Of a DNA stretch of 22,367 nt, positions 1,679-22,367 are shown one piece after another. The stretch is from positions 1 to 22,367 of the IMG/VR virus record IMGVR_UViG_3300002334_000306, one strand, 5' to 3'. The notes under the pieces are model-generated. The model saw nothing but the letters and a program-made list of their open reading frames with translations. It made no database searches and was not told where the DNA came from. The position numbers were made by a program, and so were the translations under genes. Each line of letters begins with the position of its first letter. Within the stretch, counting starts at the first letter, position 1. Origin of the DNA: a virus.

Positions 1679-2295
1679 TGTACATCTTTCTGGGTGCAAT
1701 CGAATTGCATTGTTCCATTCAGCTGCTCGGAGGTAATTTCTTCGAGTTGCATATTTATGATCTTATCGACAAAAGCCTCATCTTTGCGAGCAAGCAGATA
1801 TGCGGCAAACTGATCCGGTCGGCAGTGAATTACGATATCGTTTTGCTCTTCTTCAATGTCAATTTTGAATACATTCTTAACCATATTAATCATTATCGGC
1901 GCATGATGTGCCTCGGTGCCATTGAAGTTTTGTGCTGGCGCTCGCAATAAGAATGACAGATAGGATGGCGTTGATCGGCTACTGCAACCCCTAATACCTT
2001 TATTTCTATATTTGGTCGCATTGCAGATTTTTCTTTGCCTTGGCATGTCATCTCTGTTACGCACCTGGACGAGCCACTTGGGAATTAAATCATAGATGTC
2101 GTTCATCAACATCAGGAAGTGGGTGTACTGCTCCGGCGTGATTGTGAAAACCAAATCTCGTTTCCAATTGCAGCGTCCAATTGTTTCCCCGAACGCCCGG
2201 GAGATTGCCGCGCGCATTTTGCTTTCCTTGGTGGCTTCTTTATGCACTTCCTTATATGGAATGGTGAGTACGAGATGAGTGAGTGAGTGAGTCAT
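1675..2295 (-). CDS. Unknown phage protein (206 aa)
   Basis: The start is taken at 2295 (MTHSLTHLVL), because an AGGAAAC ribosome site sits about 6 bases upstream and the next gene upstream in the operon ends at 2315. A longer frame to 2412 would read into that gene. The first codons contain a short GTGA/GAGT tandem repeat. The protein looks like two related halves: a hydrophobic strand, a helix, then a phrase like D-hydrophobic-V/I-F/H-T/C-I-T/R-P-EQY/DQF (FTITPEQY near residue 50, IHCRPDQF near 165). That suggests an internal duplication of about 100 residues. The middle part (about 75-110) is rich in Arg, Lys and Cys. No known family is recognisable. Confidence 0.7.
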   Translation of the reverse strand: MTHSLTHLVLTIPYKEVHKEATKESKMRAAISRAFGETIGRCNWKRDLVFTITPEQYTHFLMLMNDIYDLIPKWLVQVRNRDDMPRQRKICNATKYRNKGIRGCSSRSTPSYLSFLLRAPAQNFNGTEAHHAPIMINMVKNVFKIDIEEEQNDIVIHCRPDQFAAYLLARKDEAFVDKIINMQLEEITSEQLNGTMQFDCTQKDVQ

Positions 2296-2314
2296 ATTGT
2301 TTCCTGTCGTTTGT

Positions 2315-3310
2315 TTAGAAGTTTTCAGATACGAAATCCAACACAGCCTGTGCGTTGTCGCTGATCTTGGCAAGCATCTCACGGTTCTCACGCTCAATCT
2401 CACCGGCTGCATTCCATGCTTCGAAGTCGATGAAGCTTTTGATTTCAGATGAGATCAGATCGCTAATGACGGATGGAGTCAGTGCGTCGAGTTCCCAAGA
2501 GGTATCACCAAATTCTCGCATGTAGGCTTTCGCACGACTATCGGTTACTTTTGTTGGGTTGGGTGGCGGACTGTACTTCTCAATCTGATCCATGTTCATG
2601 GCGATGCGGCGGATTTCAACCTCACATTCGGAAAACATGGAGACGCGCACTTGGTTGTCTCTTGTCATGTCGATGCCAGATGGATCGTGATCGCCAAGGT
2701 GAATCAAGACGGTACGCTTGCCTTCTGCTTCGGCAGCTTTAAATCGGTTGCCAGCGTCCCACTGCGCAGAGGCAGACATGTATCCTTTACAGGCCATGTA
2801 CGGAACATCCCAAGTGTTGCATGGTCGCTCGATCACATTTGACAGAGCATCTTTCTCAACCCAGACTTCCACGTAGGTGTCTTGAGTTGCCCAGCGATCT
2901 TCGGAATAGGCATATTCAATACCATCGAGAACACTGGCTGGCTCGTCATTGTTGTATGGTAATTTACATTTGCGTCCACGATCTTCGATACGGTCGAACG
3001 GAATTTCACCTGCAAGGCGCGCGTCCGTAATGATGCTGCCAAGGCGTTTGTATGATTGCTCAGTGTTTGGCAACCAAGCTTTCGCAATGAAGCGGTAATA
3101 CAGCTGGCGCAGAGACAATTTGTAACCCTGCTTGCGATACTCTTCGATGAATACGTTTGCCCGGCTGATGATGTGCTGGTGGTCTTTGTTGAATTTCTTT
3201 GCAACGTAGACTTTGTTTGCAGGACCTACCGGCTCGCCGCAATACCCACATTCAGATTCCATCGTCGGATCGTTCTCGTTACCACATTCACATTGGATGT
3301 ATGTTGTCAT
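2315..3310 (-). CDS. Spo11/topoisomerase VI A-like TOPRIM protein with zinc ribbon
   Basis: The product is 331 residues. Residues 7-24 form a CxC...CxxC zinc-binding knuckle (C7, C9, C21, C24). At 67-73 the sequence LRQLYYRF matches the winged-helix motif (R-x-x-YY) that carries the DNA-cleaving tyrosine in Topo VI A and Spo11, most likely Tyr72. The TOPRIM metal site is visible as VWVEKDAL (Glu152) and LGDHDPSG (Asp207, Asp209). These are the key residues of a type IIB topoisomerase A subunit. No ATPase B subunit is present in the window, as in the orphan 'Mini-A' proteins known from phages and plasmids. A role in DNA cleavage, replication or recombination is likely; the substrate is unknown. 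The neighbours upstream are small, one with a zinc ribbon. Identification is firm, the exact activity is not. Confidence 0.88.
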   Translation of the reverse strand: MTTYIQCECGNENDPTMESECGYCGEPVGPANKVYVAKKFNKDHQHIISRANVFIEEYRKQGYKLSLRQLYYRFIAKAWLPNTEQSYKRLGSIITDARLAGEIPFDRIEDRGRKCKLPYNNDEPASVLDGIEYAYSEDRWATQDTYVEVWVEKDALSNVIERPCNTWDVPYMACKGYMSASAQWDAGNRFKAAEAEGKRTVLIHLGDHDPSGIDMTRDNQVRVSMFSECEVEIRRIAMNMDQIEKYSPPPNPTKVTDSRAKAYMREFGDTSWELDALTPSVISDLISSEIKSFIDFEAWNAAGEIERENREMLAKISDNAQAVLDFVSENF

Positions 3311-3326
3311 ATTTTTATTCCTGTGT

Positions 3327-3530
3327 TTATGATTTGTTGATGTCTTTTAGGTTTTCCAATTCTGGGATGAATTGTTTTATGCATTCGCCGCCTTCGCCAT
3401 ACAATTCGTAGAACCGCTCGGCAAGTGGGCAACCCATAACGCCGTGTTCGCCAGTCATTGCTTCATTAGCATCGGTGCGGTCGTCGGTGACAAAGCCTTC
3501 GGTTTTATTTGCGTTCCATACGATGAACAT
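3327..3530 (-). CDS. Small unknown protein (67 aa)
   Basis: The start is placed at 3530 (MFIVWNANKTEG), where TAATG joins it to the stop of the preceding gene. A longer frame to 3647 would overlap that gene by over 100 bases and carries a low-quality, Arg- and Pro-rich extension. The 67 residues begin with a beta strand, contain an acidic stretch (TDDRTDANEA), and have two cysteines in short loops (GVMGCPLAERF and GGECIKQF). There is no membrane segment. The function is unknown. Its place directly before the topoisomerase-like gene means they are co-expressed. Confidence 0.65.
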   Translation of the reverse strand: MFIVWNANKTEGFVTDDRTDANEAMTGEHGVMGCPLAERFYELYGEGGECIKQFIPELENLKDINKS

Positions 3531-3826
3531 TATTCTGATCCTTTTGCAAAGTTTCGATTGTTTTCTCGCCATTGCCTTGACCATGGAGTAAGAGATGTAT
3601 GGCGGTGCGGGTATTGGGCTGGCTCCAGATCGGTTGAGTGTCCACATTCAGGACAACCTACAACCACTTGTTCAGAGGGAATATGAAACGTGGTCTCTCG
3701 TGGTGAGAAATAACGCAGATCATCCCGGTCGACGAGCAGTAGCGCGCCACAACCTGATTTCTCGTTACCTTTGCCAGTGCAGTGCACTTCGACTTGGAAG
3801 GGGAGTGGTTTCTTTAGGACTTTCAT
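3530..3826 (-). CDS. Small zinc-ribbon protein
   Basis: The product is 98 residues with four cysteines arranged as CTGKGNEKSGCG (C16, C26) and CPECGH (C58, C61), separated by about 30 residues of beta-type sequence. This is a typical treble-clef or ribbon zinc site and resembles small zinc-ribbon proteins common in tailed phages. The C terminus is basic and Trp-containing (TPWSRQWRENNRNF), suitable for nucleic acid or protein contact. The start overlaps the preceding gene by four bases (ATGA), and the stop is shared with the next start. A nucleic-acid-binding or adaptor role is likely from the fold only. Confidence 0.75.
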   Translation of the reverse strand: MKVLKKPLPFQVEVHCTGKGNEKSGCGALLLVDRDDLRYFSPRETTFHIPSEQVVVGCPECGHSTDLEPAQYPHRHTSLTPWSRQWRENNRNFAKGSE

Positions 3827-4359
3827 GCTTTGCTCGCTTTGTGTTTTTCACGGATCGTGTGTTTTCGCCATTCCTCGGCGTTGGTAATCAGCAGGTCAAA
3901 ATCTTTGAGTGTGCCGTTGGGAACGCGCTGCTGCATGTACTCACCAATGCGCGCTTGCTCCACGAGATTGTCGAAAGCTTTTAGTTTCGGTGCCGGGATG
4001 TGTTTTTGGATCGCAGAAATTACAGTGTCCACATAAGAGTTGTTCGAGAGGTTGTATCGGTTGGTGCCATCATAATGTTTACGCAATGAAACAATGTCTA
4101 TGAACGCAACGTGACTGCTGCGCGGTTTATTGGCTGAATGAAGACGCTTGTTTAATTGAGTGACTGATCTATTATAGCGCTTGAGCACGGTCTCCAAATC
4201 ATTCTTTCCCTGAACCAATTGTAATGAATCTTTCAGGTGTTGTGGGCCGTGTTGTGGCATATATAAGAGTTCGGGTTTAACCAACGCAACCTGATCGTAA
4301 GCAGAAACGATGCTGAGATACTCTTTGATTAGCTGGTCAATTATCTCTTTGTCAGTCAT
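3823..4359 (-). CDS. Unknown protein, first gene of the leftward operon
   Basis: I choose the ATG at 4359 (MTDKEIIDQL), with an AAAGG site about 8 bases upstream, giving 178 residues. An ATG twelve codons earlier (4395) lacks a ribosome site and overlaps the candidate promoter. The protein is mainly helical and basic (calculated by eye). A central stretch reads SSHVAFIDIVSLRKHYDGTN, and the C terminus is a charged helix ending in KHKASKA. No motif or family is recognised. As the promoter-proximal gene of an eight-gene operon it should be the most strongly expressed of the set. Confidence 0.7.
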   Translation of the reverse strand: MTDKEIIDQLIKEYLSIVSAYDQVALVKPELLYMPQHGPQHLKDSLQLVQGKNDLETVLKRYNRSVTQLNKRLHSANKPRSSHVAFIDIVSLRKHYDGTNRYNLSNNSYVDTVISAIQKHIPAPKLKAFDNLVEQARIGEYMQQRVPNGTLKDFDLLITNAEEWRKHTIREKHKASKA

Positions 4360-7999: not shown

Positions 8000-8014
8000 C
8001 AGCGAGATTTTCGT

Positions 8015-8054
8015 GTTTGTTAACCTTAATTAGTAGGGTTAACAAACGATTTTT
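8015..8054 (+). terminator. Probable intrinsic terminator after terL
   Basis: GTTTGTTAACC (8015-8025) pairs perfectly with GGTTAACAAAC (8037-8047) around an 11-base loop, followed by GATTTTTTCCCC. The stem is AT-rich but long, with a six-T tract. It sits directly after terL. Its core is also the first copy of the 25-bp GTTAAC palindrome, so it may act as a protein site as well. Confidence 0.6.
8019..8043. repeat. 25-bp GTTAAC palindrome, copy 1
   Basis: The arms are GTTAACCTTA and TAGGGTTAAC with a 5-nt centre (ATTAG). One arm base differs from the other two copies and still allows a G-U pair in RNA. The same 10-5-10 arrangement recurs at 9095-9119 and 13775-13799. Confidence 0.8.
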
Positions 8055-8059
8055 TCCCC

Positions 8060-8461
8060 GGCGAAAATCTACTATTAACCTTAACAAACGATTTTACTTG
8101 ACATGAAAATTAACCACAAATCCAATTGTATATCTCTGTGGTAACTGACATACCACACAAAATCCCGTGATTTCCTTAGAACAAGCACTGTCATTTTCTT
8201 AGAACTAATCCTCTAAGTTACTGATTTTGCTTGTCTTTATTTTTGATCTAAGAGTTTGCACATTTTCTTAGAACTCCTTAACAAAACGGTTAAATACAAA
8301 TGAGAACTCAAAACACATGTGTGTTATGCCCACACCACACATTTTAGGAGGCAGTAGGGACCCTGCGAGTTTCAAACATGGGGTGGGTCTATTGATCGAA
8401 AACCAGAATTAGGAATCGGTTCACGCTTGCTCCCAGGGGGCATATATGCTATTTAAAATTC
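8060..8461. other. Non-coding region with CTTAGAAC repeats
   Basis: No gene is visible. CTTAGAAC occurs three times in the same direction (8175-8182, 8198-8205, 8267-8274), twice as TTTTCTTAGAACT, and once inverted near 9383. A hairpin TGTGGT/ACCACA lies at 8137-8157. A strong ribosome-site-like TAGGAGG at 8344 is not followed by a usable start codon. GCATATATGC near 8440 is a perfect palindrome just before the next gene and may be part of its promoter (TTCACG, 17 bases, TATATG). Confidence 0.5.
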
Positions 8462-8761
8462 ATGCAAATCTTAGGTAAATCAATTGAAGAATATGATCGA
8501 ATGCAAACCATCGACGCAAAGAAACAGCACTGGTGGAAAAAGCTGTGGCATGTCAAAAATAGAAAAGTGATGCCACTCTATGGGTACAGATTAAAGCAGC
8601 AAGAAATCGCCAAGGAATTATTTGACAGATCAAATTATATTCAGGACGCTTCAAGGCATTTCGATCAGGAGAATTTTGAGTTTGTTTTGGGTCAATGCTG
8701 TACGGCTGCACTGGATAGCTCAGCAGTGATAGAGGATGAGTTGAGGAGTAATCCGGCTTGA
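8462..8761 (+). CDS. Small unknown protein (99 aa)
   Basis: The product is 99 residues, basic and Trp-rich in the first third (HWWKKLWHVKNRK), then helical and acidic. There is no signal peptide or transmembrane segment. The start ATG has no clear Shine-Dalgarno sequence, and the upstream 460 bases are non-coding, so the gene stands alone between two repeat-rich stretches. The C-terminal half (about 50-95) reads like a short helical bundle, with LGQCCTAALDSSAVIEDEL. No family is recognised. Base use and an intact frame support a real gene, but isolation and the missing ribosome site lower confidence. Confidence 0.55.
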   Translation: MQILGKSIEEYDRMQTIDAKKQHWWKKLWHVKNRKVMPLYGYRLKQQEIAKELFDRSNYIQDASRHFDQENFEFVLGQCCTAALDSSAVIEDELRSNPA

Positions 8762-8789
8762 GCTGAAAGAAAGAAAAAAGATTTCATGC

Positions 8790-8880
8790 TTGCTTGCTTG
8801 GCGAGCTCTCGGCGCGCAGCGCGGAAGAAGAAATTTTTCTGCTTGACGGCTTTTTGCGGCTCGCCGTGTTTCTGCGTGCA
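8790..8880. other. GC-rich structured patch after the 99-aa gene
   Basis: GGCGAGC (8800-8806) and GCTCGCC (8859-8865) can pair around about 52 bases that contain further small hairpins (GCGC-GCA-GCGC, AGAAATTTTTCT). An alternative is ACGGC/GCCGT at 8846-8867 with a T-run inside. It contrasts with the AT-rich flanks. It could be a terminator region or a short structured RNA; I cannot decide. Confidence 0.35.
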
Positions 8881-8885
8881 GCATG

Positions 8886-9137
8886 GTTAACGGACTTGGT
8901 GAAAAAAGATGGTTAACAAATCGTTAAAAAACGTGGTTAACAAAATCTTAACGTTAACCAGTTAACGATTCGTTAAGGTTAACGAAATGTGAATTTCATC
9001 TTTTGTTAACTTAGTCTGGAAACGATTTGTTGTCAATCGTTAACCAATGTTCATCATAATTATTAAGGTTAACGTTTTGCAAAATTAAACATTTGTTAAC
9101 CTTACGAATTAAGGTTAACGTGTGAAATTACGTTAAC
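8886..9137. repeat. Dense cluster of 12 GTTAAC sites
   Basis: Exact GTTAAC occurs at 8886, 8912, 8936, 8953, 8961, 8978, 9005, 9039, 9068, 9095, 9114 and 9132. Because the hexamer is palindromic each is a site on both strands. Many have the longer form GGTTAAC, and near-matches (CGTTAAG, CGTTAAA, ATTAACC) fill gaps. Such iterated sites are typical of replication origins, partition sites or large operator arrays. There is no gene in this stretch. Confidence 0.85.
9095..9119. repeat. 25-bp GTTAAC palindrome, copy 2
   Basis: GTTAACCTTA, centre CGAAT, then TAAGGTTAAC: a perfect inverted repeat with a 5-nt centre, embedded in the GTTAAC cluster. Confidence 0.85.
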
Positions 9138-9170
9138 GGAAAATTAACCATACCAAAATTTTGTTGGTCG

Positions 9171-9325
9171 AAAAATTGACAGACCGATTTTTATGTGAGT
9201 GGAAAATTTCCACACGAAAATTTTGAACCGGCAAAAAATTCACACGCAACTTTTATGTATTCGAAAAAATTCACACGCAACTTTTATGCACTCGAAAAAA
9301 TTCACACGCAACTTTTATGTGCTAG
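9171..9325. repeat. 31-bp tandem repeats (three near-perfect, two degenerate)
   Basis: Three units beginning AAAAAATTCACACGCAAC start at 9233, 9264 and 9295, a period of exactly 31. They share at least 25 bases and differ only in the few bases after TTTTATG. Two decayed units lie upstream (about 9171 and 9203) with the same A-tract, TT-C/G-ACA and TTTTATG frame. There is no spacer between units, so this is not a CRISPR array. The A-tracts recur every three helical turns and would bend the DNA. The array sits between the GTTAAC cluster and the first gene of the small-gene cassette. Confidence 0.85.
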
Positions 9326-9353
9326 GTAAAATTTTTTCTGAACATTAACGCTC

Positions 9354-9359
9354 TATAAA
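9354..9359 (+). promoter_or_regulatory. Possible -10 element of the small-gene cassette
   Basis: TATAAA lies about 45 bases before the first likely start codon of the cassette. No good -35 is visible; a TTTTTTCT stretch occupies that position. Confidence 0.3.
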
Positions 9360-9402
9360 CCAACTAAAACGAATCGGCTTGTGTTCTAAGAAAATAACGA
9401 CT

Positions 9403-12582: not shown

Positions 12583-13242
12583 ATGGCACAATTAAAATCA
12601 AAATGGGTTTACAAATATCATGAATTGTCAGACGCTGCAAAGCAAAAGGCGATTGACTGGTATAGAGCTGCATGCGCTGGCGATATGTACTACAGTGAGT
12701 ATGTTCTAGAGGATGCGGCGCGCATGGCCTTTCTATTGGGAATTGAATTATCGACTCACACTATTCCGCTAATGAGTGGCGAAACGAGACAAGAACCAAT
12801 TATTTACTTTTCCGGTTTTGCCAGCCAAGGCGATGGTGCATGTTTTGAGGGCGAATATTCCTATAAAAAAGGCGCTATCAAAGCGATAACAGATGAGACT
12901 GGCGGAACTGATTCCGAACTAATCCGAATCGCAACTGAATTGCAGGAAGTCCAAAAAGAGTTTTTCTATTCGCTCAATGCGACCATGCGCCATAGCTCGA
13001 ATCATTATTATCATTCTGGTTGCATGACAGTCGAAACTGATTTGTCAGATTCTGTTGACCTTTGGGGAAATCGCGATTTAGAAGATGCCGCCGAATCAGT
13101 CGGGCAACTAATGCGCGATTTTGCCGATTGGATTTATAAACGCCTTGAAGATGCCTATGATTACGAAAATTCCGACGAACAAATCATAGAGTCGATTATT
13201 GCGAACGCTTATGAATTCGACGATACAGGGGAGCGCGCATAA
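12583..13242 (+). CDS. Unknown phage/bacterial family protein (219 aa)
   Basis: The product is 219 residues. It begins with YKYHELSDAAKQKAIDWYR, continues with a helix carrying EDAARMAFLLGIEL, then IIYFSGFASQGDGACFEGEY and a long C-terminal helical region with HSSNHYYHSGCM. This phrase order belongs to a widespread phage and prophage family that some databases loosely label as an antitoxin; I know of no solid function. The length looks complete. A GGGAG ribosome site precedes the start. It is the last gene of the cassette and is followed at once by the repeat-rich block. Confidence 0.78.
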   Translation: MAQLKSKWVYKYHELSDAAKQKAIDWYRAACAGDMYYSEYVLEDAARMAFLLGIELSTHTIPLMSGETRQEPIIYFSGFASQGDGACFEGEYSYKKGAIKAITDETGGTDSELIRIATELQEVQKEFFYSLNATMRHSSNHYYHSGCMTVETDLSDSVDLWGNRDLEDAAESVGQLMRDFADWIYKRLEDAYDYENSDEQIIESIIANAYEFDDTGERA

Positions 13243-13287
13243 GCACCCCTCTATATAGGCCCATATAGCACCCCTCTATATAGGCCC
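13242..13287. repeat. 21-bp tandem direct repeat
   Basis: The 21 bases at 13242-13262 (beginning AGCACCCCTC, ending TAGGCCC) are repeated exactly at 13267-13287, a period of 25 bp. The first copy overlaps the stop codon of the 219-aa gene. Confidence 0.85.
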
Positions 13288-13293
13288 TCCCGG

Positions 13294-13330
13294 CAGGCCC
13301 GCATATGGACTCTCACCATATGCGGGCCTG
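13294..13330. repeat. Perfect 14-bp inverted repeat (hairpin)
   Basis: CAGGCCCGCATATG (13294-13307) and CATATGCGGGCCTG (13317-13330) are exact complements around a 9-base loop. No T-tract follows on either strand, so it is not a standard terminator. It could still stop transcription, protect the 3' end of the cassette mRNA, or be a protein site. Confidence 0.8.
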
Positions 13331-13640
13331 TCCCATTGCACATGTGATATATGGAATAGTGCGAGCCTTGGCTATGAGCCACACATTCACCTGATACCCT
13401 GCATATATGATATCGCATTAGCATAGAGCTATTGTCTATCACATGCACATGCCTGCCCCTGCTACCCTGCCCATATGAGCCCCGTTGTATGAGCCCATAT
13501 ATGAGCCCTCTATTAGGGGGCATGGCTGCACATACACATGTGCATGCACATCATGTGTAGATGAGCGCCATACTGCATGCGTGTACATGGGCAGAGCCTG
13601 GAACACATCAACATATTGATGAGCCACGCCTTAACCATAT
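13331..13640. other. Non-coding block with ATGAGCC repeats and purine-pyrimidine alternation
   Basis: No gene is supported. ATGAGCC occurs at 13374, 13475, 13489, 13501 and 13619, all on the plus strand. A perfect 25-base purine-pyrimidine alternation lies at 13527-13551, another of 16 bases at 13574-13589, and one of 13 near 13440. Such runs can form Z-DNA under negative supercoiling. Base composition (CATATG, TGCATG, GCCC) is unlike any other part of the window. Confidence 0.7.
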
Positions 13641-13990
13641 GATTATTTTTATATAAGGGAGTACCCCCACCCCCTCCAAAATATTAATAAAAAATTAGGA
13701 ATGAATCTTAACTAATACACGCAGCATCCGTCCTCAAATTAACACAAAATTAACCATGTTTGTTGACCACATTTGTTAACCTTATTTATTAAGGTTAACG
13801 GGGGACCCAAGCGGGGGTACCCCCTGGGGTATGGTTAACGCGCCCCTCACTGTAAAACAAATGAATCAGTTTTTAAAGTTTCACTTCTCATGTAGCTACA
13901 GGGGGGGAGTACCCCTTTAAAAACGCCGACCCCTTACCTCTAAAATTAAATATTTTGCATAAAAATTGTTTGAGCCACTATATTAAAAAC
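13641..13990. other. Non-coding AT-rich region with GTTAAC and GTACCCC palindromes
   Basis: No gene is visible. GGGAGTACCCC occurs at 13657-13667 and 13905-13915, and GGGGGTACCCCC is a perfect 12-bp palindrome at 13813-13824. GTTAAC appears at 13775, 13794 and 13834. Confidence 0.6.
13775..13799. repeat. 25-bp GTTAAC palindrome, copy 3
   Basis: GTTAACCTTA, centre TTTAT, then TAAGGTTAAC. The arms are identical to copy 2 at 9095-9119; only the centre differs. Confidence 0.85.
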
Positions 13991-14019
13991 TTGACTTTTC
14001 GCTATGGTTAATGGACAAT
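13991..14019 (+). promoter_or_regulatory. Candidate promoter of the portal operon
   Basis: TTGACT (13991-13996), a 17-base spacer and GACAAT (14014-14019) match the sigma70 consensus at five and four of six. The spacer contains ATGGTTAAT, as in the terS promoter. The transcript would begin about 30 bases before the portal start codon. Confidence 0.55.
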
Positions 14020-14054
14020 TCGCCTAACTCATTCATAGACATGGATTCGCACAA

Positions 14055-15785
14055 ATGGCGCTATACTCACCCTCAGGCAACAAAAAAGCTAAAATTGAAG
14101 CACTCATCACGTCTTATCCGACTTGGGCCCATCCAGACGTGCACTACTACGAAGATGATTGGCGCATGATCCGCAATGCCTACGAAGGCGAGCGCGCAGT
14201 GAAAGAACGTGGTATCGAGCTTCTACCGGCAATGGCTGGCATGGATAGCGAGCAATACACCCTCTACAACGAGAACGCCACATACTTCAATATGGTCGCG
14301 CGTACCGTTGGAGCCTTATCGGGTACAATTTTTCGCAGAAATCCAGTAATCGACGATCTACCAAAGACATTTAAAGAAAAAATCAATGTAATCACCAAAA
14401 AAGGTCAGAGCCTGCGCTCCTTCACACAAGAAGTAGCTCGGGAGGTCCTTCAAATGGGACGTGTAGGCGTTTTGATTGATGCCAGCGATGGTGGAGACCC
14501 ATATCTCTGCATGTACGTTGCTGAATCAATCATCGACTGGGAATCTGAGGTGGTGAATGGACGAGAACAGCTGACAAAAGTCGTGTTGATGGAGATGGAA
14601 GAAATCGAAACTACTTCTGAAATCAATACGCGCACATATCAGGTGGTATTCCGCGTGTTGATGCTTTCAAACGGCACTTACAGGCAGGAAGTTTATCGCA
14701 CGCTCGCAGAAGGAGCCACATATCCAAATATCGACGGTGACCCTGATGAAGTGAAGGTCCCAACGAAACGAGGCGTGAAGTTTAAAAGAATTCCATTCAA
14801 AATCATCGGACCAACAGCCGGTCCATGGGATATGCAGCGCTCTCCGATGCTTGATATCGCAGCGATGAACATTTCCCACTACCGCTCATACGCTCAGCTG
14901 GAGCATGGGCGCTATTACACTGGCTTCCCTATATTTTGGGCGTCAAAAGCCTCTGCTGACCAAACAAACACATATGAACTGGGGCCTGACCGTGTTTGGG
15001 AGCTTCCATCCGGTGAAAAAGCTGGATTAATGGAATTTAATGGGCATGGACTGAAATTCTTGGAGAGTGCGATCCAAACGAAGCAAGGGCACATCGCCAG
15101 CCTCGGGGGACGCATGATTGGTGTGGAAGTGCAGGCAACGGCTGAATCTGACAACCAGGTCAACATGAAAGACCGGAACGAACAAGCCCTTCTATTCGAA
15201 GTGACTTTGAGCCTTGACGAAGCGTTCACTGACATCCTACGCCTCTGGGCTGAATGGGATAGCATGAACAAGACAGCGGCTATGAAGATTTCGATTGAAT
15301 TCAACAAAGACTTCATGCTAAAAGAGGTTGCCGCCCGGGAATTCCGTGCGATCCAAAGCATGTACGCCGATGGCATCCTTCCAATCGAAGTGCTCTTTGA
15401 TTACATGAAGAAAGCCGAAGTTATCCCTGACTGGCTGGAAATTGCCGAGTTTAAGAAACTTCTTAAATCAACCGCGTCCTTCCCGAACAACCCTGATGTT
15501 GATGCAAAAGCAAAAGGTTTCCCTGATGCCAAGTCACAGCAACAGGTAGAAGAAGCTGAAAAATCTCGCGAACATGAGACCGATGAAGCCAAGCTTGATC
15601 GCGAGGCGGAGGAAGAAAAAGCCAAAGAAGCGGCCAAAGAAGCGGAGAAAACCGCCGTAATCGCTGCAGCAAATGCGGAGAAAATGCAATTGACCAAAAG
15701 CCCGAACGACCCTAACTCCAATGATTCCGGGGTAAATCTACAGGGAAAACTCGTGAGAGATCAGCAAGATAAAAACCGGACATAA
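14055..15785 (+). CDS. Portal protein (DUF4055 type)
   Basis: The product is 576 residues. The N-terminal part (about 10-110) has the phrase order of DUF4055 portal proteins: a start region with DDWRMIRNAYEGERAVKERG, then YFNMVARTVGALSGTIFRRNP. A helix with QMGRVGVLIDASDGG follows at about 135-150. Residues 240-420 carry the clip and wing-type sequence IPFKIIGPTAGPWD...PMLDIAAMNISHYRS and GRMIGVEVQ. The last 90 residues are an Ala/Glu/Lys-rich coiled coil with a disordered tail. It forms the dodecameric ring at one capsid vertex through which the terminase pumps DNA. No typical ribosome site is visible before the ATG. Downstream a head-protein gene would be usual but is absent. Confidence 0.9.
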   Translation: MALYSPSGNKKAKIEALITSYPTWAHPDVHYYEDDWRMIRNAYEGERAVKERGIELLPAMAGMDSEQYTLYNENATYFNMVARTVGALSGTIFRRNPVIDDLPKTFKEKINVITKKGQSLRSFTQEVAREVLQMGRVGVLIDASDGGDPYLCMYVAESIIDWESEVVNGREQLTKVVLMEMEEIETTSEINTRTYQVVFRVLMLSNGTYRQEVYRTLAEGATYPNIDGDPDEVKVPTKRGVKFKRIPFKIIGPTAGPWDMQRSPMLDIAAMNISHYRSYAQLEHGRYYTGFPIFWASKASADQTNTYELGPDRVWELPSGEKAGLMEFNGHGLKFLESAIQTKQGHIASLGGRMIGVEVQATAESDNQVNMKDRNEQALLFEVTLSLDEAFTDILRLWAEWDSMNKTAAMKISIEFNKDFMLKEVAAREFRAIQSMYADGILPIEVLFDYMKKAEVIPDWLEIAEFKKLLKSTASFPNNPDVDAKAKGFPDAKSQQQVEEAEKSREHETDEAKLDREAEEEKAKEAAKEAEKTAVIAAANAEKMQLTKSPNDPNSNDSGVNLQGKLVRDQQDKNRT

Positions 15786-15958: not shown

Positions 15959-16078
15959 ATGACGCCACAACATGATCGACCACCTGAGAGCCCTTGGTAT
16001 TTTCTATTTAAGGGACTGTTGGCTTTTACTATAATTGCCGTAGCCGCACACTTCCTTTCTGCACGAGGCGTAATCTGA
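15959..16078 (+). CDS. Tiny membrane protein (39 aa)
   Basis: An ATG with a GGAG site 6 bases upstream opens a 39-codon frame: MTPQHDRPPESPWYFLFKG, then a hydrophobic helix LLAFTIIAVAAHFL, ending SARGVI. One membrane pass is expected with the N terminus in the cytoplasm. The TGA stop overlaps the next start (TGATG), the coupling style used all through this phage. This strongly supports a real gene despite its size. The function is unknown; small phage membrane proteins of this kind include lysis and exclusion factors. Confidence 0.7.
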   Translation: MTPQHDRPPESPWYFLFKGLLAFTIIAVAAHFLSARGVI

Positions 16079-18765
16079 TGGCGCTGCTCCCACCACATCT
16101 ATGGCATATTTACATGCCCTCAATTCTCGAACAGATGAAAACCCAAAGCGTATTGACGCCGTTTGCCGAGAACTCTCTGTACAAATACGTTATGCATAGG
16201 CGAGACGAATTTCCTTCCATTTACATCAACGCACCTGAGTCGAAAGAAGGTAAAGACATGAATCACATTATCAACAAATACCTCAACATCATTTCGCCAA
16301 AACGTAATCCGCTTACAATGGTAACGGCAAAACAGAAGGCAATGTATGCAACAAAAATGATGACAGATATCTATTTGATTATGCGCCAACTGACGCCGAA
16401 TGCTGAAAATCTCTCTTTGGGTGAATTTGCCGCTCGTTGGTTTACTGGATCAAGAGCCTACAATCACCTATTGGAAAATATCCAACCGTTTACCGGGCCT
16501 AAACAACAGGAAATGTTTCTGACGCGCTTCGTCGATCAGGTAATTGCCGACCTGCGAAACAATAACGATCTCGCCGATCTCGATAACTGGGACCAAGCAC
16601 TCGATCTGCTTGAAGACCTCGAAGCTTTTGCAGCGGATGATATTGATCCAATGGGCTTTGAAATCCTGGCACAAATCTGGCAGATCAAAAAAGCACTCAC
16701 TCCATACGAACCACACTTTGGCCTTCACCCAGCAGACGGTAAAGACTGGGAAAAATTTGTCGCCAGTGATCTCTATGACAAAGCCGGTGTACTCGGATAC
16801 GGCGAGTTCGAAGTTGATGGTGAAAAGAGCATGTACTTCTACGGCTTCCAAACTATGCAGGACTTATTCGACGCCGGTGGCACAGTTGCCCGAACTGAAT
16901 TGAAAAGCAAAAGCAACTTGAATTTTGATGAGCCGAGCAAAGGCTTCTCTTCCGACCAGCGTCATGCAATTGAAATGTTCGCTGACTATTTCCCACAACA
17001 TGTTCTCGATTGCGGCTGGTTCTTTGATGCGAAGAAGGCGAAAAATCCTTGCCTTGATATCGATGCATCTCTGCTGTGTGGATGGATGTTTGATTGGCAG
17101 AAACCTTCTATCGATCCAAGCGAATACAAAACAGTCTCACTACTTGATATTGAACTCCCACCAATCAAATGTCTCTCCGACATAGTTGGATCGTCAGTGA
17201 GTTGTACGTTAGAAGAGGCACTAAGGACTGATCCGTCCAGGTGTGCGATATTTTCATCTGTTACGCCCGATCTGATTTTCGAACTGACCATTGAGACAAA
17301 ATGTGGCGTCACAGTTTCGTGCCCTATCACTGCCGAGCAGTTTCGTGCTTATAATGAAGACTCAGATGCTTGGCTAACAAAGATGCTAAACATAAAACCG
17401 ACTAAGCTTGAGGTCGGACACTTCTGCGCCGGAGAGATGGATTATGTGCGTGAAGGCATCAGCTGGAACGCTGTTACATTTCCAGATTTTGCGCGCTACC
17501 CTAAGCCAATGAAAAATTTCTCGCAGCAGACACTCAATAGTGATATGGCGACTTGCTGCCTATCTGCCGAAGAAGCCGAGCGCCAGCGGAGCGATCCTAA
17601 TTGGCCTCAGGAACTCTTCACCGAGATGTATGAAGGATTCGTCGCCGACCACGCCCGGCAGATTATTGACGCAATGATCAGCGATAAAACATGCACCACA
17701 ATCCTATCTGACAAAACCTACCAGTTTCTGGACAGCAAAGGAAACTGGCTGGAGGGCATCCGCCCACACGTAACCATCACCGATGAAGTCAAATCAATCA
17801 AAGTTGGTCTGGGCAAAGAAGGCGGTGGCGGCGACCTCTATGAACTGCGCCAAGAACTGATCGACTCCATCAATGAGACGCTGCAGAAAACTATGGCAGC
17901 AGACATTGATGCTGATGATGCAGAGGTATGGGTGACCAAATCAGTAATCAAAAGCAAGATTTTGGGTAATATTACAGTGAAGGATTATCACGACACCCAA
18001 GATGATGCTTTGGGTTTTGCACGATCAATTACGCAAAATGGTTATGACCTTGAACAGCAAGAAGTTGTTGAAATTGATGTCACACCAGCAAGCGAGAAAT
18101 ATGCAGGATTCTGCATGACGTTTATTGAGCCGGTCGAAACTGGTCAAGTAGGCATCAGTGATAAATCAAAATCAGCTGCTCTGGATAAAGAAACTGAATT
18201 TTTTCTAAAAAAGGGAGACTCGACTGTCCGGGCTCTCGTTGATACTGGCGGAGATGAACCAAAAGATTATCTGCGCTCCTTCGAAACGCGCGAGCAAGCA
18301 GACAATTTTGCACATGGCATCATCGACAATGGCTGGATGGTCGGTGAATATATCAATGGACCTGACAACAATGTCGGTGAAGACTACTGCCGTGTTTGTT
18401 CGGTGCATGTTAGATATGGCGATGCGCCAGACACTTTCGAAATCACTGGAAAGATCGAAGTTTACTTCGGTGGCATTGATGATGGCTGGCATAAGGTCAA
18501 AACATTCATCAGCGGTGGCGAAGACAAAGTGTTCACCGATCTGTTTCGCATCGATGCTGCTGCCATGGATCATGTTGAACATATTCTTGAATGTGGGTAC
18601 ATCGACGTTGAAGATGATGTCGATACCTTTTATCCAAAACACACCGTGCAGAAAATTGAACTGCATACTCCCGGCGACGAATCTGCCCTGTACAACGAAT
18701 GGGTATTCGACTTCGAAACATTTGACGCCAATGGCGTCCCAACAATCACAGCAAGGAAAGTTTAA
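16078..18765 (+). CDS. Large unknown protein (895 aa) with C-terminal repeats
   Basis: The second longest product type for phages, yet no family is recognised. The N-terminal third is helical. The middle (about 220-560) is mixed alpha/beta with nine or more cysteines but no regular zinc motif. The last 280 residues contain three related units of 55-75 residues, each a beta strand, a helix and a final strand: TQDDALGFARSITQNGYD (near 640), TREQADNFAHGIIDNGWM (near 737), DAAAMDHVEHILECGYID (near 826). The common phrase is A-x-x-F/V-x-x-x-I-x-x-x-G-Y/W. The signature residues of RNA polymerases, nucleases or lysozymes are not seen. It is coupled to the 39-aa gene and to the DNA ligase (TAATG). 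A DNA-metabolism or virion role is equally possible. Confidence 0.85.
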   Translation: MALLPPHLWHIYMPSILEQMKTQSVLTPFAENSLYKYVMHRRDEFPSIYINAPESKEGKDMNHIINKYLNIISPKRNPLTMVTAKQKAMYATKMMTDIYLIMRQLTPNAENLSLGEFAARWFTGSRAYNHLLENIQPFTGPKQQEMFLTRFVDQVIADLRNNNDLADLDNWDQALDLLEDLEAFAADDIDPMGFEILAQIWQIKKALTPYEPHFGLHPADGKDWEKFVASDLYDKAGVLGYGEFEVDGEKSMYFYGFQTMQDLFDAGGTVARTELKSKSNLNFDEPSKGFSSDQRHAIEMFADYFPQHVLDCGWFFDAKKAKNPCLDIDASLLCGWMFDWQKPSIDPSEYKTVSLLDIELPPIKCLSDIVGSSVSCTLEEALRTDPSRCAIFSSVTPDLIFELTIETKCGVTVSCPITAEQFRAYNEDSDAWLTKMLNIKPTKLEVGHFCAGEMDYVREGISWNAVTFPDFARYPKPMKNFSQQTLNSDMATCCLSAEEAERQRSDPNWPQELFTEMYEGFVADHARQIIDAMISDKTCTTILSDKTYQFLDSKGNWLEGIRPHVTITDEVKSIKVGLGKEGGGGDLYELRQELIDSINETLQKTMAADIDADDAEVWVTKSVIKSKILGNITVKDYHDTQDDALGFARSITQNGYDLEQQEVVEIDVTPASEKYAGFCMTFIEPVETGQVGISDKSKSAALDKETEFFLKKGDSTVRALVDTGGDEPKDYLRSFETREQADNFAHGIIDNGWMVGEYINGPDNNVGEDYCRVCSVHVRYGDAPDTFEITGKIEVYFGGIDDGWHKVKTFISGGEDKVFTDLFRIDAAAMDHVEHILECGYIDVEDDVDTFYPKHTVQKIELHTPGDESALYNEWVFDFETFDANGVPTITARKV

Positions 18766-20627: not shown

Positions 20628-20967
20628 TAATATCAGCATAAATTGGTCCAAGCAGGTCATGACGATCCGCGCGCCGATGTGTCTTCGTGACGTACAAATT
20701 GCCATGAAGAATTCCATGTTCTCTCGCACAAAACTGAGAGTAGTAATTTTGAATCACAGTTTTGATTATCTTGAGCAGCGGCGGGGCGCGCCTACAATGC
20801 CCCGGCTGGTACTGGACGTTGGCTGGAAAATAATCGGTGCGGATTACATCACCGATGCCAAGCACACCATCAATTGGTACGACGACGATACGGGTGAAAC
20901 TATCTGCCAGCATGTCTTCGAACGCATCCCTTTGGGATTGAGAAAACCAATAAAAATTGAAAATTAG
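20605..20967 (+). CDS. Unknown phage protein (120 aa)
   Basis: I place the start at 20605 (MSLKNLADNISINW), about 8 bases after a purine-rich AAGAAG stretch and overlapping the previous gene by 23 bases. An ATG at 20659 (MTIRAPMC) is an alternative; a longer frame to 20527 is unlikely. The sequence holds short beta strands and a central segment VILNHSFDYLEQRRGAPTMPRLVLDVGWKIIG, then YDDDTGETICQHVF. There is one Cys pair and no membrane segment. It is the last gene before the structured RNA region, whose promoter begins three bases after the stop. Confidence 0.7.
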   Translation: MSLKNLADNISINWSKQVMTIRAPMCLRDVQIAMKNSMFSRTKLRVVILNHSFDYLEQRRGAPTMPRLVLDVGWKIIGADYITDAKHTINWYDDDTGETICQHVFERIPLGLRKPIKIEN

Positions 20968-20969
20968 TG

Positions 20970-20998
20970 TTGACTCCCTGATTTCCTTCACGTATAAC
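20970..20998 (+). promoter_or_regulatory. Consensus promoter of the giant structured RNA
   Basis: TTGACT (20970-20975), a spacer of exactly 17 bases, and TATAAC (20993-20998): five of six matches in both boxes, the best promoter in the window. It starts three bases after the upstream stop codon and points into the region without genes; initiation is expected near 21005. Confidence 0.8.
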
Positions 20999-21004
20999 GG
21001 ATAA

Positions 21005-22367
21005 ATCAAAGCGCGTTACTTCGGTAACAAGCTAAGTGTAGATAGCAGACTAGGACCTGGGGGCAGTACCCAGCATCTCCACCACAAACACACTCTAAGC
21101 TGGCTGATACCCGCTGACCGGTTTTCGTAACTACCCTGTATCAGCAGGATGAGAAAATTGAGTGTGTTTATGATGGGGATGAAATAGGATCGACTGGTTG
21201 TGAATGATATTGAGTTGTCTTTGATTATGGCGAGAACGCACACGTTAAATGCAAATGATAACGTAAAAATTGAAATGGAACTTGCAATTGCCGCGTAAGC
21301 GTCAACCATAGTTACCATGGAATGGGTTCGAAGATGGAAAAGGACCTGGAAACAGAAATCTTCATAAATTATACCGAGTGATCTGCAGATACAGATTACG
21401 GACTGAAACAGAACCGACGATCAAAAGTCGGGTGCTCAGTAAGTCAAGAGAGAGGGTTACGACCTCGCCTCGGTGCCAGTTAACGGGCAAACCCTCCCTG
21501 ATAGGGCATGCATGCGATGGTAGGAGAATCCCCTACTTGTCCGACCAGAATATCAAGGTTTCCTATCATGACAATAGTCTAGGAACGGTAAGCGAACGAA
21601 ACTTATAGGCGCGCGTCTCTTAACGTGTGATAACTAGAGCTGAAAACAACGGCAGAGCGAAAGCTCAGCACCTTGACCACAAAGACCGCTCGACCATCCT
21701 CCCACGGATGCCGGACGGAAAAGGATAAACGTCCCTCTAAAAAGAAGATATCTGATGGAGATAGCGGCAACTCTGGAAACGGTCGCTTGAATTCGGAGCC
21801 GCTAACTCAGCCCGGCAGGGCGTATGCTACACGAGAGAGCGTGCGAAGCAGACAAAACTAGCCGGTAATAAGCACACCCTCCGATGCTAATACACGATGC
21901 AGCTAAACTTCGTGTGACTTACGTTCGGTGGAGAGCAACCGGCAAATAGCCTCGTCACCTTAATTGGCGTGACTTGTGGGTGGAAGAGTAACCCTCGATA
22001 GACAATTGAACAAATGCCCTTGGTCGCGCTTGGGCTGACTTCGGGAGGTGGAAAGAACCTCCCTACAAATTCAGTTTGGATTGTTGCTCTTTAAGTTTAG
22101 TATAATGGAGAGCGCCGGACGGTAAATTAGCCACTAGTAAATCGGTGTTCCCTAAGGCTAAACACTTCTGGTAATCACCCAGAGGTGCCGACATAATCGC
22201 TTGATACCGATTATCTGTGGAGCCATCGCGAGGCAATTTTACGTCACGGAGTCCATCATAGGAATAGGAAGGTCCCGCAACTCAAAGAAATGGCGGGTGT
22301 ATTGTTCTCTTAGGAGTTAATGACCTGAGGAATAAGCCGGAGCTGAGATTCATTACTTGCTTCCTGG
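21005..22367 (+). ncRNA. Giant highly structured non-coding RNA (partial, continues past the window)
   Basis: From the promoter to the window end (about 1.36 kb) no credible protein gene exists on either strand. The sequence is instead packed with short perfect helices that often close on stable loops. Examples are GTTAC-UUCG-GTAAC (21015-21028), a 10-bp closing helix 21086-21095/21160-21169 around an 8-bp helix 21103-21110/21138-21145, GTGATCTG/CAGATTAC (21378-21399), GAGGGTT/AACCCTC (21452-21496), GAGC-GAAA-GCUC (21655-21666), TAGCGGC/GCCGCTA (21762-21804), GCCGGT/ACCGGC (21861-21943), GGGAGGT/ACCTCCC (22043-22063), CACTTCTGG/CCAGAGGTG (22163-22187) and ATAATCG/CGATTAT (22193-22214). At least 25 such helices can be drawn, about one per 55 bases, with GAAA and UUCG loops and purine-rich joints (GGAAAC, GAAAC). 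Length, order and phage context resemble ornate RNAs of the GOLLD and ROOL type. I cannot assign it to either by eye, and it is longer than the usual size of both. Confidence 0.8.

What the first reader, a model, noticed from the sequence alone, without database searches (positions are those of the whole stretch)
20970..22367. A giant ornate phage RNA, possibly a new class, with its own consensus promoter
Seen: a TTGACT-17-TATAAC promoter directly after the last gene, then at least 1.36 kb with no credible reading frame but about 25 perfect helices of 4-10 bp, including nested ones (21086-21169 enclosing 21103-21145), UUCG and GAAA tetraloops, and a domain-closing GGTTG/CAACC pair (21196-21200 with 21303-21307). 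Known: phages carry very large structured RNAs of unknown purpose, notably GOLLD and ROOL, often near the middle or end of an operon. Inference: this is such an RNA, more than 1.3 kb long, hence longer than the usual GOLLD (about 800 nt) or ROOL (about 600 nt). Either it has an added 5' domain or it is an unnamed class.
Basis: partly seen in the sequence, partly recalled or inferred. Interest (0 to 1): 0.93.

Follow-up and report, generated by a model that had tools for sequence, protein, structure and literature searches.

The report
Phage tmRNA plus unclassified kilobase stretch
The supposed giant phage RNA begins with an ordinary ribosome-rescue RNA (a two-piece tmRNA) that the phage carries, and the kilobase after it is noncoding and matches no known RNA family, so it may be a new RNA but that is not yet shown.

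Summary
The stretch is not one giant RNA. Window 20975-21366 is a circularly permuted, two-piece alphaproteobacterial-type tmRNA (Rfam RF01849 108 bits, RF04321 91 bits; ARAGORN tag ANDNVKIEMELAIAA). An identical, longer contig shows that the noncoding stretch ends at about 22413, before two small genes and a tRNA cluster. The remaining ~1.05 kb has no coding signal and raised G+C, matches no Rfam family beyond chance level, and has no relative in the collections searched. Single-sequence folding does not set it clearly apart from other sequence of this phage, so a new structured RNA is plausible but unproven. In relatives the permuted tmRNA is common (8 of 9 GenBank records). Of 54 records searched 6 hold GOLLD, and in all 6 it lies upstream of the tmRNA on the same strand within 1.5 kb; the paper searches showed no report of that. 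Main call: known tmRNA plus an unclassified noncoding kilobase.

The parts
20970..20998 (+). sigma-70-like promoter TTGACT-17-TATAAC in front of the tmRNA
   Evidence: consensus match only, no transcript data
20975..21366 (+). permuted two-piece tmRNA gene (ssrA), alphaproteobacterial type; ARAGORN gives 20989-21389
   Evidence: RF01849 108.1 bits E 5e-29, RF04321 90.8 bits E 1e-16
21053..21084 (+). acceptor piece: T arm and CCACCA 3' end
21175..21363 (+). coding piece, from GGGGATGAAATAGGATCGAC to the conserved 3' motif GGACCTGGAAACAGAAATCTTC
21251..21298 (+). tag reading frame ANDNVKIEMELAIAA followed by TAA
21367..22367 (+). unclassified noncoding stretch, continuing to the equivalent of 22413 in L082; G+C 0.491; candidate structured RNA

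Best explanation
A phage-borne tmRNA gene followed, in the same apparent transcription unit, by about 1.05 kb of unclassified noncoding RNA. Shown by sequence models: 20975-21366 has the parts of a permuted alphaproteobacterial-type tmRNA. Inferred from established tmRNA biology: transcription from the 20970 promoter gives a precursor, tRNA-processing enzymes cut out the intervening hairpin (21085-21170), and the two pieces stay paired through the acceptor stem, are charged with alanine and work with the host's SmpB to free stalled ribosomes, tagging the broken proteins with ANDNVKIEMELAIAA. The phage would gain ribosome supply during infection, alongside the tRNA cluster that follows. Inferred more weakly: with no intrinsic terminator found up to the next gene, the transcript runs on through 21367-22413, which is most likely a large RNA of its own, cut from the same precursor.
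For: tmRNA. Permuted tmRNA in 16 of 34 records searched (the twin contig counted), 8 of 9 GenBank records. Synteny in the nearest relatives: L205, L220 and L221 have a portal gene, a permuted tmRNA 4-5 kb further on (Rfam; ARAGORN finds it in L221 only), then 414, 534 and 313 bases to the first frame of at least 110 aa. By the same measure the window has 1242 bases, while in 89 of 120 tmRNA-pattern loci that gave a value the median is 29 and 4 reach 600. Downstream stretch: no coding signal; G+C 0.491 against 0.444 in window 1-20970, reached by 1% of 1047-nt windows there, and against 0.357-0.443 in four other long gaps; MFE below 99 of 100 shuffles. No terminator-like plus-strand site between the tmRNA and the next gene. 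Relatives carry GOLLD next to the tmRNA.
Against: For the downstream RNA: no homologue, hence no covariation. 6 of 37 other 1047-nt windows of this phage have MFE z-scores as low, and the minus strand folds equally well (0 of 100 shuffles as low). 120-nt windows do not differ from the rest (15 against 349 windows, p = 0.27). Stems and tetraloops at chance. No expression data. For tmRNA function: not tested; no smpB was sought in the phage.
Confidence: 0.6

Rival explanations
1. The kilobase 21367-22413 is not a functional structured RNA: it is a spacer, a long leader of the small gene that starts at 22414, or worn remnants of older genes or tRNAs.
For: No homologue in what was searched; stems, tetraloops and local folding at chance; 6 of 37 other windows fold as well against shuffles; the window has other gaps of about 460-810 bases; a ribosome-binding-like GGAGAAGAA precedes the ATG at 22414.
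Against: Its G+C and purine content are unlike the other four long gaps (0.491 against 0.357-0.443; 0.552 against 0.474-0.522); MFE is below 99 of 100 shuffles; no tRNA match there at E up to 10.
Confidence: 0.35
2. The kilobase is a strongly diverged GOLLD, which sits beside tmRNA in related phages.
For: GOLLD lies next to the tmRNA in 6 of 54 records, 5 of them relatives by portal protein; the tRNA-island setting is alike.
Against: No GOLLD match at E up to 10 in 20900-22367 or at E up to 0.001 in the whole 55-kb twin contig; a model of the GOLLD 3' domain built from 6 phages gives at best 2.5 bits here against 148-195 in four of its own training copies; GOLLD lies upstream of the tmRNA in all 6, this lies downstream.
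Confidence: 0.06
3. The whole 20970-22413 stretch is one giant RNA of a new class with an added 5' domain.
For: One promoter match at its start, no terminator found, no reading frame.
Against: The first ~390 nt fit two tmRNA models end to end, with a tag frame.
Confidence: 0.02

Closest known systems
Permuted (two-piece) tmRNA, Rfam RF01849 alpha_tmRNA and RF04321 tmRNA_permuted; phage example OM43 phage Melnitz (PMC9004378, passages read)
   Same: Acceptor piece before coding piece, intervening segment, tag frame, conserved 3' motif. Phage-borne two-piece tmRNA is already in print: among 18,146 phage genomes 402 phages had 133 unique tmRNA types, 53 called two-piece (PMC9004378).
   Different: Followed directly by about 1 kb of unclassified noncoding sequence, two small genes and a tRNA cluster.
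GOLLD, Rfam RF02032 (PMC12286853, passages read)
   Same: Large phage noncoding RNA near tRNA islands; in relatives of this phage it adjoins the tmRNA.
   Different: No match in the window or its 55-kb twin, nor to a phage-specific 3'-domain model; lies downstream of the tmRNA, not upstream.
ROOL, Rfam RF03087
   Same: Large phage RNA near tRNAs (PMC12286853, passages read).
   Different: No match by Rfam scan or over the 55-kb twin at E up to 10 (where no control rang).

Membership tests
Permuted tmRNA (RF01849/RF04321) | Match to the covariance model over its full length above the gathering score | tested here: met
   108.1 bits (cut-off 50), positions 1-355 of 355; 90.8 bits (cut-off 47), positions 1-213 of 213
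Permuted tmRNA (RF01849/RF04321) | Permuted order with acceptor piece, intervening segment and coding piece with a tag frame | tested here: met
   ARAGORN tmRNA* with tag ANDNVKIEMELAIAA; positions
Permuted tmRNA (RF01849/RF04321) | Two-piece processing, alanine charging, tagging with SmpB | not testable with these tools
   needs RNA and protein from infected cells
GOLLD (RF02032) | Match to the GOLLD model (conserved 3' region) | tested here: not met
   none at E up to 10 in 20900-22367; none at E up to 0.001 in 55,459 bases, 9 candidates scored; R1 best 2.5 bits
ROOL (RF03087) | Match to the ROOL model | tested here: not met
   no control genome rang
Any other Rfam family | Match to one of 4227 models over 21367-22413 | tested here: not met
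   (to 22367, E up to 10): only Yar_3 on the minus strand, 13.5 bits against a cut-off of 50, E 1.6; (whole stretch in L082, E up to 1): none
A new structured RNA class | Compensatory base changes among homologues | not testable with these tools
   no homologue found; the one other copy is identical over the 18,313 bases compared

The most novel reading that the evidence does not exclude
21367-22413 is a new class of large phage RNA, unrelated to GOLLD and ROOL, made from the same precursor as the phage's tmRNA. It would stand beside tmRNA as GOLLD does in related phages, so that several unrelated large RNAs are recruited to one locus devoted to ribosome rescue and tRNA supply, perhaps to hold ribosomes, tRNAs or tmRNA.
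Probability: 0.3. Interest if true: 0.72.

Novelty: new variant of a known kind. Interest (0 to 1): 0.42.

Why it matters
It removes a false giant RNA and leaves a sharper question. GOLLD and ROOL have no known function; GOLLD is reported to form hollow cages and to bind ribosomes in pull-downs (PMC12286853, passages read). Finding GOLLD next to tmRNA in all six GOLLD-bearing records here, and an unclassified kilobase next to tmRNA in this phage, ties such RNAs to ribosome rescue by position. That gives a testable place to look, in isolated phages of Ruegeria and Phaeobacter (DSS3P8, MD18).

Tried and rejected
Homologue hunts that failed for 21367-22413: blastn in 50,697 phage records (with 20970-22367 at 1e-5: no match; with 21390-22367 at E up to 10: one match over 32 query bases, E 4, chance); 72,556 plasmid records at E up to 1 (none); 32 whole records at E up to 1 (9 records with short matches, best 16 bases at E 0.009 in G029, not believed); 385 genomes of the class of G026, the Rhizobium genome behind L277 (one 28-base match, which lies inside a protein gene). 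Earlier blastn and nhmmer runs against fetched loci were partly cut (one search printed 60 rows), so one search repeated them in full against all 308 held loci that do not come from the twin contig (3.26 million bases): 2 blastn rows at E up to 1 (the same 28-base match and a 20-base one), 0 nhmmer rows. A permissive alignment against 230 tmRNA flanks gave a best z of 3.3 (L134 and L137, upstream side) which I judged chance and did not follow.

Finding relatives: the last part of the upstream frame (117 aa) and the 895-aa protein found only the twin contig; the portal found two others, its alignments 24 others and 5 others.

YrlA: matches downstream of tmRNA in RcXuper and RpAliso (41, 42 and 35 bits, below the cut-off of 69). 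In one search (E up to 1) the model also rang in 13 of 14 control genomes, below the cut-off, and at many places in tRNA clusters, so I do not claim Y RNAs. Pseudo-tRNA remnants: only at ARAGORN thresholds lowered to 75%, not believed.

A structured RNA shared with L205/L220/L221 was considered: by eye they share a motif after the tmRNA, but I saw none of it in the window.

Folding energy as proof: rejected. The known GOLLD of DSS3_MAL1 is no better than shuffles (z -0.29), nor is the window tmRNA clearly (z -1.14).

A slip: the gap table skipped 17 of the 120 tmRNA loci (L083-L099) through a naming error; one search recomputed all 120. L094, with a gap of 1034 by that measure, was not read.

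Full report
What was claimed.

What the first 390 bases are. Rfam places a complete alphaproteobacterial tmRNA at 20975-21366 (RF01849, 108.1 bits, E 5e-29, positions 1-355 of 355) and a permuted tmRNA at 21023-21298 (RF04321, 90.8 bits, positions 1-213 of 213). ARAGORN independently calls a permuted tmRNA at 20989-21389 with tag ANDNVKIEMELAIAA. The anatomy is: acceptor arm and CCACCA at 21053-21084; an intervening segment closed by a perfect 10-bp stem, 21086-21095 with 21160-21169; the coding piece from 21175; the tag frame 21251-21298; and the conserved 3' motif 21342-21363. The promoter TTGACT-17-TATAAC at 20970-20998 is there, though such matches are not rare in this sequence (8 plus-strand sites in 25,188 bases, 5.95 in shuffles).

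Where the stretch ends. The window is a whole 22,367-base virus record. Another IMG/VR contig of 55,459 bases is identical over the 18,313 bases compared and runs on. The noncoding stretch ends at about 22413, where a 74-aa frame with a GGAGAAGAA leader begins; a second small frame follows, then a tRNA cluster (ARAGORN calls nine tRNAs after the tmRNA). No intrinsic-terminator-like plus-strand site was found between the tmRNA and those genes.

The remaining kilobase, 21367-22413. At E up to 10 the window part has one Rfam match, Yar_3 on the minus strand at 13.5 bits against a cut-off of 50 (E 1.6), which is chance; the whole stretch has none at E up to 1. It has no codon-phase signal and stops in every frame. 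Its G+C, 0.491, is reached by 1% of windows of equal length in 1-20970 and by none of four other long gaps (0.357-0.443); its purine content (0.552) is close to the tmRNA's (0.556). Measured to the first frame of at least 110 aa, the gap after the tmRNA is 1242 bases here; in 120 tmRNA-pattern loci, 89 gave a value, with median 29, and 4 reached 600. These facts fit an RNA gene.

Tests that do not favour it. Perfect stems are at chance (at least 5 bp: 68 against 59.7, 21 of 100 shuffles as many; at least 7 bp: 6 against 3.5, 9 of 100; at least 8 bp: 0 against 0.8). Tetraloop hairpins are at chance (1; 73 of 300 shuffles). Local 120-nt folding does not differ from the rest (mean z -0.45 in 15 windows against -0.35 in 349, p = 0.27). 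Whole-length folding of 1000 of its bases was z -1.68 with 1 of 20 shuffles as low. With pairs limited to 200 bases it was z -3.20, 0 of 60, and z -2.78, 1 of 100; mean pairing entropy was reached by 5 of 60 and confident pairs by 7 of 60 shuffles. But 6 of 37 other windows of this phage fold as well relative to shuffles, and the opposite strand does too (z -2.59, 0 of 100). A true GOLLD gave z -0.29 and the window tmRNA z -1.14 in the same test, so the test has little power either way.

No homologue. blastn in the phage and plasmid collections found nothing beyond one chance match. A full rerun over 308 held loci (3.26 million bases) gave 2 short blastn rows at E up to 1 and no nhmmer row. 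Among 32 whole records 9 gave short matches, best 16 bases at E 0.009. In 385 genomes of the class of a Rhizobium genome one 28-base match lies inside a protein gene. Without homologues the decisive covariation test could not be made.

What relatives show. By portal protein the nearest relatives are five other contigs at 54-58% identity (L205, L206, L220, L221, L238) and, further off, large phages of Rhodobacter, Ruegeria and Phaeobacter at 42-44%. A contig of Rhizobium rosettiformans W3 has a portal at 55%. Permuted tmRNA was found in 16 of 34 records searched, the twin contig counted, including 8 of 9 GenBank records; the exception is Microcystis phage Mwe-JY26. Many of the 34 are short fragments. 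In L205, L220 and L221 the tmRNA (Rfam; ARAGORN misses it in two of the three) lies 4-5 kb after the portal and is followed by 414, 534 and 313 bases without a frame of 110 aa; by eye these share a motif among themselves but not with the window.

GOLLD beside tmRNA. Rfam finds GOLLD in DSS3_MAL1 (160.5 bits) and DSS3P8 (150.7 bits) just before the tmRNA. I gave 54 records: 31 portal relatives (the twin included) and 23 of the 120 tmRNA-pattern loci, mostly from the long-gap end of the list. 6 carry GOLLD at E up to 0.001, 5 of them over the curated cut-off. In all 6 a permuted tmRNA follows on the same strand, 84 to 1485 bases after GOLLD. MAL1 and MD18 are near-copies here (91-95% identical), so this is about five independent cases; five of the six were reached through the portal, not through the tmRNA. 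The converse does not hold: of 13 portal relatives with a tmRNA that were searched for both, 8 show no GOLLD, among them RcXuper, RpAliso and the window's twin. Searches for papers holding phage, GOLLD and tmRNA, or GOLLD and ssrA, gave four and two papers. In the passages of PMC6582537 that I read no such linkage is described; the others I saw as listings only. A wider search showed none with GOLLD among its ten listed rows of 1,654 papers. Most subscription papers are not in the library.

The window against GOLLD. A covariance model of the GOLLD 3' domain, built from these six phages, scores 148-195 bits on four copies, all of its own training set, and at best 2.5 bits in the window stretch. 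The Rfam GOLLD model finds nothing in the whole 55-kb twin contig. So the kilobase is not GOLLD by these tests.

Reading. The finding is a phage-borne two-piece tmRNA, a kind already in print (PMC9004378, passages read), followed by an unclassified noncoding kilobase. How the tmRNA works is inferred from established tmRNA biology: processing into two pieces, charging with alanine, rescue of stalled ribosomes with host SmpB, tagging. Whether the kilobase is an RNA of its own is open; I put a functional RNA of some kind somewhat above a mere spacer, and an unnamed structured class at about 0.3.

Noticed in passing
L278-L283, L317 (MD18, DSS3_MAL1, DSS3P8, G015, G020, G027): GOLLD lies upstream of a permuted tmRNA on the same strand, 84-1485 bases apart, in all 6 GOLLD-bearing records of 54 searched.
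   Followed up: partly
L216 and L218 (RcXuper 2200-4320, RpAliso 1900-3950): No GOLLD match, but the tmRNA sits within 1.8-1.9 kb without annotated genes; upstream stretches are 85% identical over 101 bases between the two phages, and downstream modules match YrlA weakly (35-42 bits, cut-off 69), a model that also rings on tRNA clusters.
   Followed up: partly
L205 13085-13600, L220 16705-17110, L221 7705-8320: After the tmRNA these relatives share, by eye, a motif resembling GGTCAAAGGACGCC..GGCAACGCAAGTCCTCAG within sequence lacking long frames, with GC-rich terminator-like hairpins further on.
   Followed up: no
window 8000-9400 and 13700-14060: GTTAAC is concentrated here: 14 and 3 of the 21 copies in the window, against 4.0 (sd 2.6) in shuffles of the whole window, next to a 31-base tandem repeat at 9233-9320; possibly an origin or partition site.
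   Followed up: no
window 13230-13640: A gap that looks rich in short palindromes such as CATATG and ACATGT (by eye), with a 25-base tandem repeat at 13238-13287.
   Followed up: no
window 16078-18765: An 895-aa protein without a Pfam or PHROGs match at E up to 0.001 or a phage-collection match at 1e-5; in the viral scan only the twin contig encodes it.
   Followed up: partly
L082 12585-14520: A tRNA cluster of nine ARAGORN calls follows the stretch, one with a four-base anticodon.
   Followed up: no
L082 14043-14074: A 14-pair hairpin followed by a T-rich tail, terminator-like, inside the tRNA cluster.
   Followed up: no
L094: A tmRNA-pattern contig whose gap after the tmRNA is 1034 bases to the first frame of 110 aa; not read.
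   Followed up: no
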